Part shown: positions 2,038-8,990 of the stretch, one piece after another
Layout: each line of letters begins with the position of its first letter
Position numbering within the stretch: position 1 is the first letter of the stretch
NCBI GenBank assembly: GCA_029974925.1
Contig: JARKQH010000476.1
Coordinates: 1 to 37,471 of the forward strand
Origin: Verrucomicrobiota bacterium
GTDB lineage: Bacteria; Verrucomicrobiota; Verrucomicrobiia; Limisphaerales; UBA8199
Length of the DNA stretch: 37,471 bases
Reading direction: 5' to 3'
Notes under the pieces: model-generated
Databases searched by the model: none
What the model was told of the DNA's origin: nothing
Seen by the model: the letters and a program-made list of their open reading frames with translations, nothing else
Program-made: the position numbers and the translations under genes

Positions 2038-2670
2038 CTATCCCAGGCTATCCATAAAATCTGGGATAGACCGCTGGCGGACGGGCTGGGACTGCTTGCG
2101 AAGCTGGCTGAACTGTAGGCTGCGCCCAAGCGATTCCAGAGCCTGGTCCTTGGCTCCGGGGCTGCGCGGGCCGGAGCAGCGCGGCGTGAACAGATCGCGG
2201 ATGGTATCGGTGGCCGGGTCGAAGCTCCACAGGCCGACGTTGGATTCACGGAACAGGGCGAGGTCGGCCTCGGCCGTGGCGGCAGGATCGGGCGGCAGGG
2301 CGACCACGGCCAGATCGGCGAAATAGCTGTAGCGGCAGGCTTGGGCGAGTCCCTTGGGCCAGTCGGCCAGCTTCACCTCGAACACCGTGAGCTTGCCGCG
2401 ATTGAGCAGGGTTTTGAGTTGCTCGATGGACAGGGCGCTGCCGTCGTCGGGGTTCGTGGCGTTCTGCCATGCAATCCAGACGAAATCCGCGATCCCGAAG
2501 CCGGAGAGGGCGAATTCCTTGCCGCCGGAGCCATCCGGCGCGATGGACGCGATGTACGCCTTGCTGAAAGATGAAACGAAGTTGGATTCGCCGCGCTTGC
2601 GGGCAAGCGACGCCGGCAGGTTGCGCCGGGGATGGCGCTGTCTGAATCTGAGCAACTGCGCCGTTGTCAT
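2038..2670 (-). CDS. PD-(D/E)XK nuclease-like protein of unknown function
   Basis: A 210-aa protein taken from the ATG at 2670; a TTG at 2682 would add MRIP. The middle shows a restriction-endonuclease-like core: GFGIADFVWIAWQ (an Asp at the start of a hydrophobic strand), then LTVFEVKLADWPKGLAQA (the E-x-K signature) and CRYSYFADLAVVALP (helix followed by strand). That D...E-V-K...Q-x3-Y pattern resembles MmcB-like and other PD-(D/E)XK proteins. The basic N-terminus (RFRQRHPRR, ARKRGESNFV) could bind DNA. It is divergent from the DprA-like gene, with only 60 bp between start codons. I do not recognise a named family, so the nuclease call is a fold-level inference. Confidence 0.6.
   Translation of the reverse strand: MTTAQLLRFRQRHPRRNLPASLARKRGESNFVSSFSKAYIASIAPDGSGGKEFALSGFGIADFVWIAWQNATNPDDGSALSIEQLKTLLNRGKLTVFEVKLADWPKGLAQACRYSYFADLAVVALPPDPAATAEADLALFRESNVGLWSFDPATDTIRDLFTPRCSGPRSPGAKDQALESLGRSLQFSQLRKQSQPVRQRSIPDFMDSLG
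2039..2068. terminator. Inverted repeat between convergent hepT and the PD-(D/E)XK-like gene
   Basis: Perfect 8-bp arms TATCCCAG (2039-2046) and CTGGGATA (2061-2068) with a 14-nt loop. It lies at the convergence point just after the hepT stop and over the last codons of the minus-strand gene. There is no clear U-run, so it could be a weak bidirectional terminator or chance. Confidence 0.35.
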
Positions 2671-2730
2671 CGGAATCCGCAAAGAGCTTAGTCAATCTGA
2701 TCAGAACCCTCAACGGCAAGATGACTGGTC

Positions 2731-3285
2731 ATGAACATCGAGGTGAGAAGCATCTCGGCGGCTGAAAGCGGCCTGGGCAAGGCGGGTGGCATATCGTTGA
2801 CGACCAACACGCCCGCACGCCTGTCGGTGCTGGGCGACCCGGCTCTGCTGCGTGGCGACAAGCTCGGTTTGTTCTGCTCTGTCCGCTGTCCCGGCGACCT
2901 GATTCTCAAGGCATACGACCTGGCCAGGAAGCTGCGGGATGACGGGGTGACGGTCATCAGCGGCTTCCACTCCCCCGTCGAGAAGGAGTGCCTGCGAATC
3001 CTCATGCGCGGCAAGCAGCCGATCATCATCTGCCCGGCCCGCAGCCTTCGGAACATGCGCCTCCCGCGGGAGTGGCGGGGGGCCATCCAACAAGGCCGCC
3101 TGCTTGTGGTAACCCCGTTCGTCGGATCGCAGAAGCGCGCCACGGCGGAGCTGGCGCGCGAGCGGAACCGATTCGTCGCCGCCGTCGCCGACCGGGTGTG
3201 CTTCATCCACACCGCCGCCGGCGGCGCGTTGGAGTCACTCGCCAATGAGCTGCGCCGGGCGGGCAAGTCCCTTGTGAGTCCGTAG
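2731..3285 (+). CDS. DprA/Smf-like (SLOG superfamily) nucleotide-binding protein
   Basis: A 184-aa Rossmann-like protein. It has the strand-loop-helix pattern LGLFCSVRCPGDLILKAYDL, then DDGVTVISGFHSPVEKECLR, which resembles the DprA 'GxARGID' loop with a shift. Next come QPIIICPARSLRNMRLPREW (position of the DprA 'G-lDv-YP' strand), GRLLVVTPFV and, near the end, VCFIHTAAGGALESLANEL. Canonical DprA loads RecA on ssDNA during transformation. This short form lacks the SAM and winged-helix domains, and its neighbours suggest an accessory or defence role; SLOG proteins often sense nucleotide signals. It is divergently paired with the PD-(D/E)XK-like gene. Confidence in the fold is good, in the function low. 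Confidence 0.75.
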   Translation: MNIEVRSISAAESGLGKAGGISLTTNTPARLSVLGDPALLRGDKLGLFCSVRCPGDLILKAYDLARKLRDDGVTVISGFHSPVEKECLRILMRGKQPIIICPARSLRNMRLPREWRGAIQQGRLLVVTPFVGSQKRATAELARERNRFVAAVADRVCFIHTAAGGALESLANELRRAGKSLVSP

Positions 3286-3503: not shown

Positions 3504-3824
3504 GTGAGAACACACCAAGAGATTGAAGAGCGCAGTCTTGCCCTGGCAAAGGCGATCGTGGAGAAGATTGACCGGGATCCTGCGAGGTGTGGATTGGAAA
3601 AAGCCCGGGCGACCTGTCTCCGTTGGCACCAGCAGCGGCCGGCGCCAGGAATTTCCGAGTGGCTCAGGATTCTCGATCAGCCGTGGGAGAAAATACGGGT
3701 CGTGCTGTTGGATGAAGGCGAAGAGGGCCGAAGACTGCGGCAGAACGATCCTTTTTGCGGGATTCTGACCCCCCAAGAGCGCTGGGCCATTTACTGCGCG
3801 CATTATGAATCGCGCCGATCTTGA
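3504..3824 (+). CDS. Small partner protein of a DUF6036-type nucleotidyltransferase pair
   Basis: A 106-aa soluble protein read from a GTG at 3504 (MRTHQEIEERSLALAKAIVE). It matches my memory of a small protein paired with DUF6036/AbiEii-like nucleotidyltransferases in Verrucomicrobia and Planctomycetes: an N-terminal QEIEERSLAL helix, a W-L-x2-LD segment, and a C-terminal LRQNDPFCGILTPQERWAIY. The next gene starts 20 nt before its stop, so the pair is translationally coupled in the usual way for such TA-like modules. Which member is toxic is not known to me. This half looks complete. Confidence 0.6.
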   Translation: MRTHQEIEERSLALAKAIVEKIDRDPARCGLEKARATCLRWHQQRPAPGISEWLRILDQPWEKIRVVLLDEGEEGRRLRQNDPFCGILTPQERWAIYCAHYESRRS

Positions 3825-3990
3825 GCACTTGATCCGCGCTGCGGGCAGAGAAAAGGACTTGGAGTTTGTTCGGGCCCTCCTCCACCACCGACTGGTGGAA
3901 GCATCCGAGGTGGAGGCTTTGCTTGAGGAGTTCAAACCGGAGGAACGGGAGCGCGTTCGCGAGCGGCTGCGGTTTTGCGTGAGCCGGTAA
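3805..3990 (+). pseudogene. DUF6036-type nucleotidyltransferase with large internal deletion
   Basis: A 61-aa frame. Its start, MNRADLEHLIRAAG, is the N-terminus typical of DUF6036/AbiEii-like nucleotidyltransferases. Its remainder, REKDLEFVRALLHHRLVE onward, is their C-terminal end. The whole catalytic middle, including the GSQ nucleotide-binding motif and the acidic metal ligands normally around residues 20-110, is missing. The joint falls at an 'AAG' tripeptide, and the full-length proteins usually have a similar tripeptide before REKD. An in-frame deletion between short repeats is therefore plausible. I infer loss of nucleotidyltransferase function, which leaves the upstream partner as an orphan. 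Confidence 0.6.
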
Positions 3991-4628: not shown

Positions 4629-6887
4629 TCAGTTGCGGCCGGGGGCGGGGGCGGGGCCGATGATCTGGACGGGGGTGGTGAGGACTTCGCTCATGTCATA
4701 AGGCAGTTGCCAGACGCGGGTGCCATCCGAGTTGCAGAAGAACAGGCGGGAGGGAGTGAACTGGGTGGGGTCGCCATCGGCCCAAAAGGCAAAGAAGGGG
4801 TCTTGGGCGTTGAGCGGCCGACGGGCATAGGTGTGGTTGTAAAGGCTGTTGGTGGTGATCTGGCGGGTCAGAGTCCAGGTGAGTCCCTGGTCCACGCTGG
4901 ACCAGAGGGCCATTTCGCCGCCGGTCTGCCAGACCTGCGGGCCGTTCTGGGTGGGACCGATCACCAGCCAGCGGTCGGGCAGGATGTAAAGGCTGCCCAT
5001 GTCGTAGTTGTGGTCGGACTGGCAGACGGCCGAGAAGACCCATTGGGCGCCGGTCCAGCGGGCGAGGGTCCAGGTGCGGGGGTCGCCGGCGGGGCCGGGC
5101 TGGTAGTTGTGGCTGACGATGTAGAGGAGGACGGGGTTGCCGTTGGTGTCGAAGTTGAGGTCGCAGGTGTACATCAACTGGCCGAGGGAGGCGTAATCCT
5201 TGACGAGGGCGGGGTTGTTGGTGGTGGACAGGGGCAGCGTGAGAGGCAGGCCGGCGGCGGTGGTCCAGGTTGCGCCGTAGTTGGTGGTTTGGACGTAGTA
5301 AAGGTCGGTGCGTTTGTCCACGTCGCCGCCGGGGTGGCGGTTGAAGAAGGAGGCCACCAGGCCGTCGGCGCGGACGTTGCTGACCTGGTAATGGCCGCCG
5401 ATGCCGGCGAGTTTCTGGTGGGCGCTCCAGTGGATGCCATTGGTGCTGGTCTCCCAGTAGAGTTCGCGGCCGTTGGTGTATTTGGTGAACAGGTTGAAGA
5501 ACCCGAATCCCGGGAGGTAGCGGGGCTGCGGGTAGGTCATTTCGTCCTGCCGGATCAATTCGAACTCGGCGACACTGTAAGGCTGTTTGCTCCGGAATTT
5601 CCACCCGGGGCGGGTTCGGGCGCGGCCGCTGACGAAGACCCAGAGGTAACCCTGGTCATCGAGGGCCAGGGCGGCGTTATCGTGGGGGTCATTAACGCCC
5701 TGTTTGTCCAGGACCAGCGTGGGGCGTGGCACCTGGCCGGTGGCATGATCGTAATAGGACGCCATGATCAGGAGGTGGCGCTGGTCCTTGATGGTTCCGC
5801 CATAGACAAAGAAGGTCTTGTTGACGGCGGCGGCATGGATGGCGATGGGGATGTGGTTGGCGGTGTAGGTGCCGAGTCCGCCGGAGTATTTGTCGCCGTA
5901 TTCGGAGAACTGTCCGAGCGTGAACCAGATGCCGCGGTAGCCGTCGCTCCAGCCCTGCGGCGGCAATTTGGCGGCGCGGAAGAACTGCCGGGCGTTGGTT
6001 GCCGGCAGATGGGTAAACCAGAGGTCGCCGCCCTGGCCGGTGACGATTCCGGTCGGGCGCCAGCTTGCGGGGGCGAGGCCGGCCGCCTGCTCGATGAGAT
6101 ACTCGCGGTTGGTTTCGGCCGGGAACTTGAAGCGGAAACTGTTGTTGACAAAGGCTGGCGCCGTGAGCTCGAAGGGCGCGGGGACGACCAGCTCGCCGGT
6201 GATCACGAGATTGTCCACCTCGCCGTAGGTGCCGGCGACGCCGCGAATGCCGCCGAAGCGGACGCGGCTGAAGGGGGTGCCCTGGGGGTAGGTATTCCGC
6301 CAGGGGAGGTTCGTGGCGATGACGGAGCCGTCCACCTTGAGGTACCAACTGCCGAAGGCGGGTCCGCTCAGGTGATTGATCATTTCGATCCGGTGCCAGT
6401 TCGTGTCGAGGTCGCGGACGCCAATCCAGCTTGAGCCATTGTAATAGGCGAGCTTGTTGGAGACGGTTCCCCAGCCCAGAAGGCTGACCTCCCCGCCGGT
6501 GGTGGGCAGGAGGAAGACATCAAGGGTGCGGGAGGCGGCGGTGGAAGCCCGGGCGTCGAAGGCAATGGTCAGCTCGCCCGAGGAGACTTCCGGGAATCGG
6601 AGATAGTCGAGGTTATCCACGCCGGTTTGGGTCCGGCGGAGGACTTTACCGTGGGGGTCGGCCGGGCCCCAAGAGACGATCTGGGCGGGCGTGGCGCTGG
6701 CCGGCTGCCAGGTGAGCGAGCCATCCGTCACCGGTTGGAGACTGCCCACGGGGTAGATTTCGTCGTCCTCGAATCCGCCGACGTCACCCAAAACGACTTG
6801 TTGGTTGGTCTGGGCGGCAGCCAGGAGGGCGGAGAGAGCCAGGAGCGCAGCGGCGGCGATGGCAGAGCGGAGGGTAAGACAGTTCAT
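4629..6887 (-). CDS. Secreted BNR_4 repeat protein with N-terminal LamG-like module
   Basis: A 752-aa protein. The ATG at 6887 is followed by a clear signal peptide (MNCLTLRSAIAAAALLALSA...AAAQ). Residues about 31-230 form a beta-rich, LamG/concanavalin-like module (GGFEDDEIYPVG ... LDVFLLP ... YGEVDNLVITG) that recurs twice in the gene at 9009-11840. About 235-310 is a Verrucomicrobia-type tail module (REYLIEQAAGL...ARQFFRAAK). About 314-752 is a BNR_4 propeller: GYRGIWFTLGQ, TFFVYGGT, SYYDHATGQVPRP, DPHDNAALALDDQGYLWVF and YNHTYARRPLNAQDPFFAFW. BNR_4 includes ulvan-lyase-like enzymes (PL24/25) among many uncharacterised members, so polysaccharide lyase or binding activity is only an inference. 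It is the last gene of a four-gene minus-strand run. Confidence 0.85.
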   Translation of the reverse strand: MNCLTLRSAIAAAALLALSALLAAAQTNQQVVLGDVGGFEDDEIYPVGSLQPVTDGSLTWQPASATPAQIVSWGPADPHGKVLRRTQTGVDNLDYLRFPEVSSGELTIAFDARASTAASRTLDVFLLPTTGGEVSLLGWGTVSNKLAYYNGSSWIGVRDLDTNWHRIEMINHLSGPAFGSWYLKVDGSVIATNLPWRNTYPQGTPFSRVRFGGIRGVAGTYGEVDNLVITGELVVPAPFELTAPAFVNNSFRFKFPAETNREYLIEQAAGLAPASWRPTGIVTGQGGDLWFTHLPATNARQFFRAAKLPPQGWSDGYRGIWFTLGQFSEYGDKYSGGLGTYTANHIPIAIHAAAVNKTFFVYGGTIKDQRHLLIMASYYDHATGQVPRPTLVLDKQGVNDPHDNAALALDDQGYLWVFVSGRARTRPGWKFRSKQPYSVAEFELIRQDEMTYPQPRYLPGFGFFNLFTKYTNGRELYWETSTNGIHWSAHQKLAGIGGHYQVSNVRADGLVASFFNRHPGGDVDKRTDLYYVQTTNYGATWTTAAGLPLTLPLSTTNNPALVKDYASLGQLMYTCDLNFDTNGNPVLLYIVSHNYQPGPAGDPRTWTLARWTGAQWVFSAVCQSDHNYDMGSLYILPDRWLVIGPTQNGPQVWQTGGEMALWSSVDQGLTWTLTRQITTNSLYNHTYARRPLNAQDPFFAFWADGDPTQFTPSRLFFCNSDGTRVWQLPYDMSEVLTTPVQIIGPAPAPGRN

Positions 6888-7004
6888 AACATCAAAATTG
6901 CGGGGGCGGGAGTTGGTTCGAGCGTTCCGGCTGTGCTTCACCGGCCGGTGAACGATGGAGGGAAGCCGGTGGCGGTTCGGGGTTTTCCAGAAGGGCGGCA
7001 TTCA

Positions 7005-8990
7005 TCACTCATTGACGATGGCCGGCGTGGCGAAATCGCCGGTCATCGTGCTGGGCAGCCGCCACACATGGTCGCCGCGCTGGTTGGTGAAATAGAGGCG
7101 GGACTCGGAGGGCTCGCGCCCGTGGCCGTCGGCCCAGAGGGCGTAAAAATCCGGGTGGGCGTTTAGGGGGCGCCGGGCGTAAGTGTGGTTGTAGGGACTG
7201 TTGCGGGTAAGCTGTTTCACGCGAGTCCAGGACTCGCCCTGGTTGGTGCTGGTCCAAAGGACCATTTCGCCGCCGGGATTGTAGGGTTGCGGTCCGAGGT
7301 CGGTGGGGGCGATGACGCGCCAGGTGCCGTCGGGTTCGATGTAAAGGGAGCCGTGGTCGTAATTGTTGCCCGAAGTGGTGAAGGGGCGGCGCACCCATTC
7401 CGTGCCGGTCCAGCGGAGGGTCTGCCACTGGCGGGGTCCATTGGCGGGGCCGGGCTCGAATCCTTTGCTGGTGAGAAAGAGAATGACGGGCCGGCCCTCG
7501 CGGTCGAAATTGATGTCCTTGAGATAGACGAGCCGGCCTTCGGCGCGAGAATCGAACACCAGGGCGGGATTGTTGGTTTGGGTGAGGGGCAGCTCGAGGG
7601 GTTCGCCGCGGACATTGCGCCAGGTGCGGCCGAAGTCAGCGGTTTCAACATAGTAAATGTTGGCGCGGGTGTTGAGGCCGGTGGGTGAGGGATGAAAATC
7701 GAAAGCGGAGGCGACGCGCCGGCCCTCGCGCCAACTGACCTGGTAATCTCCCATTTCGATGCCGGCCAGCATCGCCGGGTCGCTCCAAGCAACGCCATCC
7801 CGGCTGGTCATGAAGAAGAGGCACCGGGTGGCGGAGATGCCCAGAGGCCGGCCGCCGCCGTAGCGGGTATGGAGGAAGAGGAAGCCCTGGCCGGGAACGT
7901 GCCAGGGTTGCGTGTAGGAGAAGTTGGTCACGAGAATGCGCTCGAACTCGTCTATGCTCCAGGGTTTGGCGCTGCGATGAATGTAGGAGGGCCGGCCCGT
8001 GCCATGGGACGAGGAAAAAATCCAGAGGTAGCCGCGGTCGTCCACCTGAAGGGTTGGATTGTCGTGGGCATCCTCCGTGTGTTTGTTGAGGAGGAGGCGG
8101 GGGCGGGGCACCTGGCCGGTTTTGTGATCGTAGTAAGACACCATGTGGAGCAACTCCTGCTTGTCGGAGGGATGCCGGGCCGTGGTGCCGCCATAAACGA
8201 AAAAGGTCTTCTGGACTTCCTTGCAGTAGATGGCAATGGGGGCGTGCTGCTGGGGGTAGGTGGCAAAGCCGCCGCTGTATTTGTATTTGAATTCGTCCCC
8301 GGTGGGCTGGTTGTAGTACCAGATGCCGCGGTATCCGTCCTCCGCCTCCAGCTTGCCGCCGGTTGGGGGCGCCTCGGCAGGGTGCGGCGAGGCGGGCGCC
8401 GCCGCCAAGGCGGCCGCGGAACCAAAGAGGAGCGGCGGCGGCTCTTGGGGCAGTTCGGCGAGGGTGTCGGCGAGGAGGTAGCGGCCGATGACGACCACGC
8501 CAGCGGGTTGGGTGACTTCGAGGGTGACCTGGTTTGAGCCGGGGGACAAAGGCACGTAGAACACGCGATTGAGAGTGTGCGTGCGGGCGGCCCGAGGCCA
8601 GACGTGGCGGCCAACGGTCACGCCATTGGTTTTGACCACCAAATCACTGCCGCCGGAGGAGACGGCGGTGAGTTCCACGCCCAGAACTTTGGGGCCGGAA
8701 AAACCGGTTTGGATCACCAAAGGGTGGTGGAGCTCCGCCTCGGCGCCGCCGTACAACCGGCTGCTCAGTTTCCTGGCCGCGGCCTGAGCCGACTCCAACG
8801 GCTGGTTACGCAAATCCAGAACCCAGGTTTCAGGCTTTTTGCCGCGCACGGTGACGCCGGGTTGGAAGCTCCACAAGGCGGCCGTCGCGGAAGCCGAGGC
8901 GATTCCAAGCAGACTGAACAGAATGAACCTTTGCGCGAGCGCCCGATGCAAACAAGGCCCCGCGAAGAACCACGAGAATAAAGCTGCCAC
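7005..8990 (-). CDS. Secreted BNR_4 repeat protein (paralogue)
   Basis: A 661-aa protein read from a GTG at 8990; a TTG at 8951 would leave a more compact signal peptide ending around ...SLLGIASASATAA. Residues about 30-200 form a beta-rich N-terminal domain with no clear match. About 218-661 is a BNR_4 propeller parallel to the downstream gene: GYRGIWYYNQPTGDEF, KTFFVYGGT, SYYDHKTGQVPRP, DAHDNPTLQVDDRGYLWIF, DHGSLYIEPDG, YNHTYARRPLNAHPDFYALW and DHVWRLPSTM. The ordered motifs shared with the neighbour point to tandem duplication followed by exchange of N-terminal domains. The intergenic gap to the downstream gene is 117 bp, and the upstream gene ends 18 bp before this start. Confidence 0.85.
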   Translation of the reverse strand: MAALFSWFFAGPCLHRALAQRFILFSLLGIASASATAALWSFQPGVTVRGKKPETWVLDLRNQPLESAQAAARKLSSRLYGGAEAELHHPLVIQTGFSGPKVLGVELTAVSSGGSDLVVKTNGVTVGRHVWPRAARTHTLNRVFYVPLSPGSNQVTLEVTQPAGVVVIGRYLLADTLAELPQEPPPLLFGSAAALAAAPASPHPAEAPPTGGKLEAEDGYRGIWYYNQPTGDEFKYKYSGGFATYPQQHAPIAIYCKEVQKTFFVYGGTTARHPSDKQELLHMVSYYDHKTGQVPRPRLLLNKHTEDAHDNPTLQVDDRGYLWIFSSSHGTGRPSYIHRSAKPWSIDEFERILVTNFSYTQPWHVPGQGFLFLHTRYGGGRPLGISATRCLFFMTSRDGVAWSDPAMLAGIEMGDYQVSWREGRRVASAFDFHPSPTGLNTRANIYYVETADFGRTWRNVRGEPLELPLTQTNNPALVFDSRAEGRLVYLKDINFDREGRPVILFLTSKGFEPGPANGPRQWQTLRWTGTEWVRRPFTTSGNNYDHGSLYIEPDGTWRVIAPTDLGPQPYNPGGEMVLWTSTNQGESWTRVKQLTRNSPYNHTYARRPLNAHPDFYALWADGHGREPSESRLYFTNQRGDHVWRLPSTMTGDFATPAIVNE

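What the first reader, a model, noticed from the sequence alone, without database searches (positions are those of the whole stretch)
3504..3990. DUF6036-type TA-like pair with the catalytic middle of the nucleotidyltransferase deleted
The 61-residue frame joins a recognisable N-terminus (MNRADLEHLIRAAG) directly to a recognisable C-terminus (REKDLEFVRALL) in frame, while the partner gene is complete. The junction at an AAG tripeptide suggests recombination between short repeats. It may reveal which partner can persist alone.
Basis: partly seen in the sequence, partly recalled or inferred. Interest (0 to 1): 0.5.

Follow-up and report, generated by a model that had tools for sequence, protein, structure and literature searches.

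The report
Gutted nucleotidyltransferase beside intact partner gene
In this bacterial genome a two-gene module that looks like a toxin and its antidote has lost the working middle of the likely toxin gene while the likely antidote gene stays whole, and related genomes show the same one-sided loss repeatedly.

Summary
Window 3504-3824 encodes a complete 106-aa protein. Window 3805-3990 encodes 61 aa that join residues 1-14 of a DUF6036 (PF19502) nucleotidyltransferase in frame to residues 127 onward. About 112 codons are missing, with every predicted beta strand and the GSQ, E-x-D, D117 and K122 positions. Two relatives carry the partner (64-68% identity) followed by a full-length enzyme. No other match found has the window's form: a deletion relic, not a conserved short gene. 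AAG occurs at both ends in those relatives; the DNA similarity there is short (runs of 3 nt), so repeat-mediated recombination is possible, not proven. A survey of 293 genomes of the order shows that the upstream partner outlives the enzyme: 27 loci (window included) have an intact partner with a broken or absent enzyme, at most 4 the reverse. In three of six plasmid loci read, the partner domain follows an XRE-type or DUF6088-like N-terminus, a common antitoxin build. The enzyme model's best structural matches include MenT toxins, at modest scores. Best reading: a disarmed nucleotidyltransferase toxin beside an orphan antitoxin, of a family that no paper found in the held library names. Toxicity and neutralisation are inferred.

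The parts
3504..3824 (+). Complete partner gene, 106 aa, GTG start; likely stand-alone antitoxin-like domain, all-helical
   Evidence: AlphaFold2 mean pLDDT 89.2 with six helices; same domain in the C-terminal part of the frame upstream of DUF6036 in six of six plasmid loci read
3805..3990 (+). 61-aa relic of a DUF6036 nucleotidyltransferase, start and stop kept
3805..3846 (+). Retained N-terminus, codons 1-14 (most of the first helix of the full-length model)
3846..3847 (+). Deletion junction after the AAG codons; codons 15-126 of relatives are absent
3847..3990 (+). Retained C-terminus REKDLEFV... (47 codons) plus stop

Best explanation
This is the relic of a two-gene, toxin-antitoxin-like module. 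In intact relatives the downstream gene encodes a DUF6036 nucleotidyltransferase, which I take to be the toxin: it would add nucleotides to a cell component, by analogy with MenT toxins a tRNA. The upstream ~105-aa helical protein would be its antitoxin. In the window's lineage one in-frame deletion removed the whole catalytic core and left a 61-aa helical stub. The cell kept the harmless partner as an orphan antitoxin. Shown here: homology of both ends, the deletion, the intact partner, the one-sided loss in the order sample, and the partner domain fused to predicted DNA-binding domains on plasmids. Inferred: toxicity, neutralisation, the target, and any benefit of keeping the partner (it may only not have decayed yet).
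For: Full-length enzyme in G058 and G081 behind a 64-68% identical partner. Survey of 293 genomes of the order: of 93 partner loci, 49 have an intact enzyme, 29 an intact partner without an intact enzyme (27, window included, once two contig ends are set aside), 2 a non-intact partner with an intact enzyme, 13 neither; ten further enzyme matches have no partner and two of them keep most of the core. 27 of 31 one-sided cases lost the enzyme; p 0.0025 against the length-proportional expectation of 0.625; 26 of 30, p 0.0035, without the window. If the partner were a potent toxin, such loci should be rare. Phylum sample, window left out: 3 of 13 partner matches lack a full-length enzyme match, 0 of 11 enzyme matches lack a partner (tables only). 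Plasmid loci: in six of six the frame upstream carries the partner domain in its C-terminal part; two have an XRE-type HTH and one a DUF6088-like N-terminus before it. Structural second look: MenT1 Z 7.0 over 142 residues, MenT3 Z 6.2, JHP933 Z 4.4. Among the closest relatives, G211:C48 has another in-frame internal deletion (49 codons) and G081 lacks the D of the E-x-D motif.
Against: No toxicity or binding data exist, and no paper of the held library holds the term DUF6036 or its accession. The structural match is modest: Z 7 lies in the range the tool calls common, an unrelated protein scores Z 5.7 over 60 residues in the same list, the model's mean pLDDT is 71.5 with residues 58-86 unreliable, and plain Foldseek found nothing at E <= 0.001. 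No Pfam AbiEii hit in the five full-length enzymes scanned. The window's partner has no DNA-binding domain. Leaving out nine loci of a divergent partner subfamily weakens the asymmetry to 18 of 22, p 0.045, or 17 of 21, p 0.060, without the window as well. Most genomes are drafts in many contigs, so some frameshifts may be errors; counts are not corrected for relatedness. G141 is a counterexample (partner cut, enzyme core intact), and G116 has lost the enzyme and has a stop in the partner too.
Confidence: 0.72

Rival explanations
1. The 61-aa stub is still a working small protein: the helices that remain bind the partner, so the deletion turned a toxin into a regulator or decoy.
For: Start, frame and stop are kept. 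The stub's C-terminus is no more diverged than intact homologues (0.53 identity to G058 and 0.51 to CPR1, 0.40 to G081, against 0.41 for G058-G081, 0.43 for G058-CPR1 and 0.30 for G081-CPR1). G211:C48 and G155:C111 also have in-frame internal deletions with C-terminal sequence kept.
Against: A recent deletion gives the same picture. One deletion in three is in frame by chance, and out-of-frame or 3'-truncated cases are commoner among those read. I saw no two relics with the same form among those read.
Confidence: 0.12
2. Roles reversed: the partner is the toxin and the nucleotidyltransferase the antitoxin, as in HEPN-MNT pairs.
For: MNT-type nucleotidyltransferases act as antitoxins in HEPN-MNT pairs (recalled); gene order alone does not decide.
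Against: 27 loci keep an intact partner without an intact enzyme. The HEPN motif R-x4-6-H (recalled) is not conserved in the partner family: the window and G058 have an R-x6-H string near the C-terminus, G081 does not. The partner domain is fused to HTH domains in two plasmid loci.
Confidence: 0.08
3. Assembly artefact: the deletion is a mis-join in a draft contig and the organism has the full gene.
For: The genome is a 487-contig assembly; reads are not available.
Against: Exact runs at the two ends are 3 nt in the two closest relatives, far below usual assembly k-mers (recalled); the joint is in frame; other relics occur in other genomes.
Confidence: 0.04
4. Neutral decay of a non-toxic accessory module; the partner survives because it is shorter and upstream.
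For: The enzyme gene is longer (about 531 against 318 nt). Both genes are broken or fragmentary in 13 of 93 partner loci. Without the divergent subfamily and the window the asymmetry is p 0.060.
Against: 27 of 31 exceeds the length-proportional expectation (p 0.0025). Three of four other orphan partners show no excess of amino-acid changes on their branches, though counts are small.
Confidence: 0.16

Closest known systems
DUF6036 (PF19502), nucleotidyltransferase of unknown function
   Same: Both ends of the window relic match full-length members; relative G081 scores PF19502 E 7.8e-9
   Different: The window protein lacks the catalytic core and is not recognised by the Pfam model
MenAT and AbiE nucleotidyltransferase toxin-antitoxin systems
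   Same: Two overlapping genes, partner first; the NTase model aligns best with MenT1, MenT3 and residues 57-195 of the S. agalactiae AbiEi antitoxin; MenT toxins pair with antitoxins of three independent families (PMC11375011, passages read)
   Different: No Pfam AbiEii hit in the enzymes scanned; partner fold has no clear PDB match; no toxicity data
Orphan antitoxins
   Same: Antitoxin genes without their toxin are abundant in Klebsiella genomes (PMC7192599, passages read)
   Different: There the search started from known Pfam toxin profiles; here the partner family had no hit at the cut-offs of Pfam, NCBIfam or PADLOC, and the corpse of the likely toxin is still in place

Membership tests
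DUF6036 (PF19502) | Match to the Pfam model above its cut-off | tested here: not met
   Window 61-aa frame: only a sub-threshold DUF5691 hit, E 0.026; full-length relative G081 36 bits against a cut-off of 23.6
DUF6036 (PF19502) | Descent from a full-length member (both ends homologous, same place in the operon) | tested here: met
DUF6036 (PF19502) | Nucleotidyltransferase motifs GSQ and E-x-D | tested here: not met
   Deleted in the window; of 18 invariant columns in alignment A1, R11, R127, K129 and D130 remain
Toxin-antitoxin system with NTase toxin (MenAT, AbiE) | Two overlapping co-directional genes | tested here: met
   Window overlap 20 nt; gaps -13 to +39 nt in 52 loci of relatives, measured between profile matches
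Toxin-antitoxin system with NTase toxin (MenAT, AbiE) | Toxin of NTase fold related to MenT/AbiEii | tested here: inconclusive
   VIA Z 7.0 to MenT1 over 142 residues; Foldseek E not significant
Toxin-antitoxin system with NTase toxin (MenAT, AbiE) | Pfam AbiEii model match in the enzyme | tested here: not met
   Five full-length enzymes scanned gave DUF6036 (one of them, L094, just below its cut-off) and no AbiEii
Toxin-antitoxin system with NTase toxin (MenAT, AbiE) | Antitoxin with DNA-binding domain | tested here: inconclusive
   Three of six plasmid loci read, one of them a DUF6088 hit just under the cut-off; absent in the window partner
Toxin-antitoxin system with NTase toxin (MenAT, AbiE) | Toxicity of one gene and rescue by the other | not testable with these tools
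   Needs expression
HEPN-MNT | Conserved R-x4-6-H in the partner (motif recalled) | tested here: not met
   Not conserved in alignment A2

The most novel reading that the evidence does not exclude
DUF6036 and its partner form an unrecognised, widespread toxin-antitoxin family with a portable antitoxin domain, and lineages disarm it by in-frame deletions that leave a helical stub which still binds the partner and has been taken over as a regulator or as protection against plasmid copies.
Probability: 0.1. Interest if true: 0.65.

Novelty: new variant of a known kind. Interest (0 to 1): 0.42.

Why it matters
The window alone is an ordinary gene relic. Followed up, it gives a natural genetic test of an uncharacterised gene pair: across species the enzyme is lost while the partner stays, which points to the enzyme as the harmful half before any experiment. 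It also points out a partner domain, without a hit at cut-off in the three libraries scanned, that sits behind different DNA-binding domains on plasmids, and so gives a clear target for a toxin-antitoxin assay.

Tried and rejected
Considered and rejected: (1) a conserved 61-aa gene: no other match has this form. The short C-terminal fragments in G046 and G166:C33 look alike in length, but G046 has no partner and no recognisable N-terminus, and G166:C33 lies at a contig end and keeps the native residues before its RPKD. (2) MNRADLEHLIRAAG as a drifted copy of the segment before REKD: MAFFT placed it there, but it matches the true N-terminus at 11-12 of 14 positions and lies at the right place in the operon. 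(3) Long exact repeats at the junction: runs of 3 nt in the two closest relatives. (4) HEPN-MNT: see the membership test.

Led nowhere: viral contigs (both families) and phages (enzyme only) gave no relative; PDB profile searches with both families gave nothing meaningful; Foldseek gave nothing at E <= 0.001 for either model, and for the partner the second look gave best Z 4.2 to an OTUB1-UBC13 complex; PADLOC and NCBIfam had no hit at their cut-offs; the promoter scan found none and the one terminator-like site is at the chance level; the age of the orphan state could not be separated from selection. Values for G116 are misaligned because of an in-frame stop and are not used.

Rows dropped or moved before counting: G267 and G166:C121 (contig ends) were set aside; locus L125 was moved from 'enzyme broken' to 'intact' after reading it. 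G063:C1 and G050 were counted generously as enzyme without partner. The contig-end rule was applied only to the partner-intact, enzyme-missing rows.

Full report
What is there. The window has two overlapping co-directional frames, 3504-3824 (106 aa) and 3805-3990 (61 aa). Neither is recognised by Pfam, NCBIfam or PADLOC at their cut-offs. Searching 97 genomes (own included) with each brought in G058 and G081, in which a partner of 64% and 68% identity is followed at once by a full-length enzyme of 177 and 182 aa. Pfam names the G081 protein DUF6036, a nucleotidyltransferase of unknown function (E 7.8e-9). The 61-aa frame equals codons 1-14 of that enzyme joined to codon 127 onward. The 112 missing codons hold the GSQ motif, the E-x-D motif, D117 and K122 and all four strands of the predicted fold (between residues 21 and 112 of the L006 model). 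What remains would be helices only.

Is it more than chance, and is it a gene? The profile of full-length relatives hits the frame at E 1.1e-9. Its C-terminal 47 codons are 53%, 40% and 51% identical to G058, G081 and CPR1, while the intact copies are 41% (G058-G081), 43% (G058-CPR1) and 30% (G081-CPR1) identical to each other. So the stub shows no extra decay: the deletion is recent, or the stub is still constrained. The genome gave no second copy of either gene at the thresholds used.

The junction. In both close relatives the residues at either end read AAG. At DNA level the 24 nt ending in these codons are 13/24 identical in G058 and 12/24 in G081, more than in 99.1% and 96.8% of random in-frame pairs of the same gene, with exact runs of 3; over 40 relatives with both sites the mean is 9.25/24 with a mean run of 3.2. 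Recombination between short imperfect repeats is possible but not demonstrated.

Which partner persists. In 293 genomes of the order, 76 have the partner (93 matches) and 63 the enzyme (79 matches). A script classified the DNA around all 93 partner matches and the ten enzyme matches without a partner (loci); I read the frames of 20 loci, 15 and 7 of the 9 enzyme-only stretches. Partner and enzyme both intact: 49 (48 by script, one moved after reading). Partner intact, enzyme not: 29, of which two lie at contig ends, leaving 27, the window among them. Partner not intact, enzyme intact: 2 (G141 clear, G009 borderline). Both not intact: 13. Of the ten enzyme matches without a partner, two keep most of the core (G063:C1; G050, a divergent one). 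So 27 of 31 one-sided losses hit the enzyme; p 0.0025 against a length-proportional 0.625, 26 of 30 (p 0.0035) without the window, 18 of 22 (p 0.045) without nine loci of a divergent partner subfamily and 17 of 21 (p 0.060) without both. Several losses cut the enzyme within about its first 40 codons while the partner reads through cleanly. G211:C48, close to G081, has another in-frame internal deletion, of 49 codons; G155:C111 has a third. In a 240-genome phylum sample, window left out, 10 of 13 partner matches have a full-length enzyme match beside them (one from position 20), one a partial one and two none, and all 11 enzyme matches have a partner (table only). These counts are not corrected for relatedness.

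What the pair does. On plasmids 59 records carry a relative of the enzyme, 29 of them predicted conjugative. In the six loci that I read, the frame upstream carries the same partner domain in its C-terminal part (in one, L095, that frame is not annotated); in Hydrogenophaga and Mycolicibacterium it follows an XRE-type helix-turn-helix and in Methylovorus a DUF6088-like N-terminus, just below Pfam's cut-off. That DUF6088 resembles AbiEi antitoxins is recalled, not shown here. A changeable DNA-binding part in front of a constant domain is how many antitoxins are built (recalled). The enzyme model, of moderate confidence, aligns best with the AbiEi antitoxin (residues 57-195) and MenT1 (Z 7.0 each), then MenT3 (6.2), ANT(2'') (5.4) and JHP933 (4.4); an unrelated protein scores 5.7 over 60 residues in the same list, and Foldseek itself gave no significant match. 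MenT toxins modify tRNA and are paired with antitoxins of three families (PMC11375011, passages). I conclude that the enzyme is most likely the toxin and the partner the antitoxin, with toxicity and target inferred. The reverse assignment conflicts with the many intact partners without enzyme.

After the loss. Pairwise omega between an orphan and its nearest paired partner is 0.054 (G200-G221), 0.067 (G284-G291) and 0.37 (G286-G248, few changes); paired-paired values in these genera run from 0.069 to 0.232. Branch counts (nonsynonymous, synonymous) of orphans are 5 and 11 (G291), 1 and 7 (G221), 1 and 2 (G248), 5 and 11 (G211), against 1 and 9, 3 and 5, 4 and 3, 7 and 8 for the paired sister; only G291 has more amino-acid changes than its sister. 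The window's own partner branch has 13 and 9 against 7 and 8 for G081 with CPR1 as outgroup, and 13 and 14 against 5 and 12 with G058 as outgroup, but 13 and 14 against 12 and 11 for G058; synonymous sites are near saturation there. So a mild speed-up in the window cannot be excluded. Either the losses are young or orphan partners are still useful; the data do not decide. Orphan antitoxins are common elsewhere (PMC7192599, passages).

Known or new. The word DUF6036 or its accession occurs in no paper of the held library, and no solved structure matches by profile. Loss of a toxin with survival of its antitoxin is a known kind of event; this gene family and partner domain appear undescribed within the libraries searched.

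Noticed in passing
G081:C182 (L010) and CPR1 (L002): Full-length enzymes that lack acid residues of the E-x-D motif: EAA in G081 and QAH in CPR1, so some full-length copies may also be dead.
   Followed up: partly
L092 (Methylovorus plasmid), 2501-3271: The DUF6036 enzyme is fused to a C-terminal KfrB domain (PF18790, E 8.4e-13).
   Followed up: no
L054 (G227:C985): Positions 2-79 of the partner profile are followed at once by positions 84-170 of the enzyme profile, as if one deletion broke both genes.
   Followed up: no
L113 (G141:C380): The rare reverse case: partner cut internally while the enzyme core is intact.
   Followed up: partly
L091 (Alicycliphilus plasmid pALIDE01): The DUF6036 pair lies directly downstream of a gene annotated as an AbiEii/AbiGii toxin family protein.
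   Followed up: no
window 2731-3285: A short 184-aa protein with a DprA-like domain (PF02481, E 3.4e-7) just upstream of the pair.
   Followed up: no
window 4629-8990, minus strand: Two adjacent large proteins, each with a BNR_4 match.
   Followed up: no
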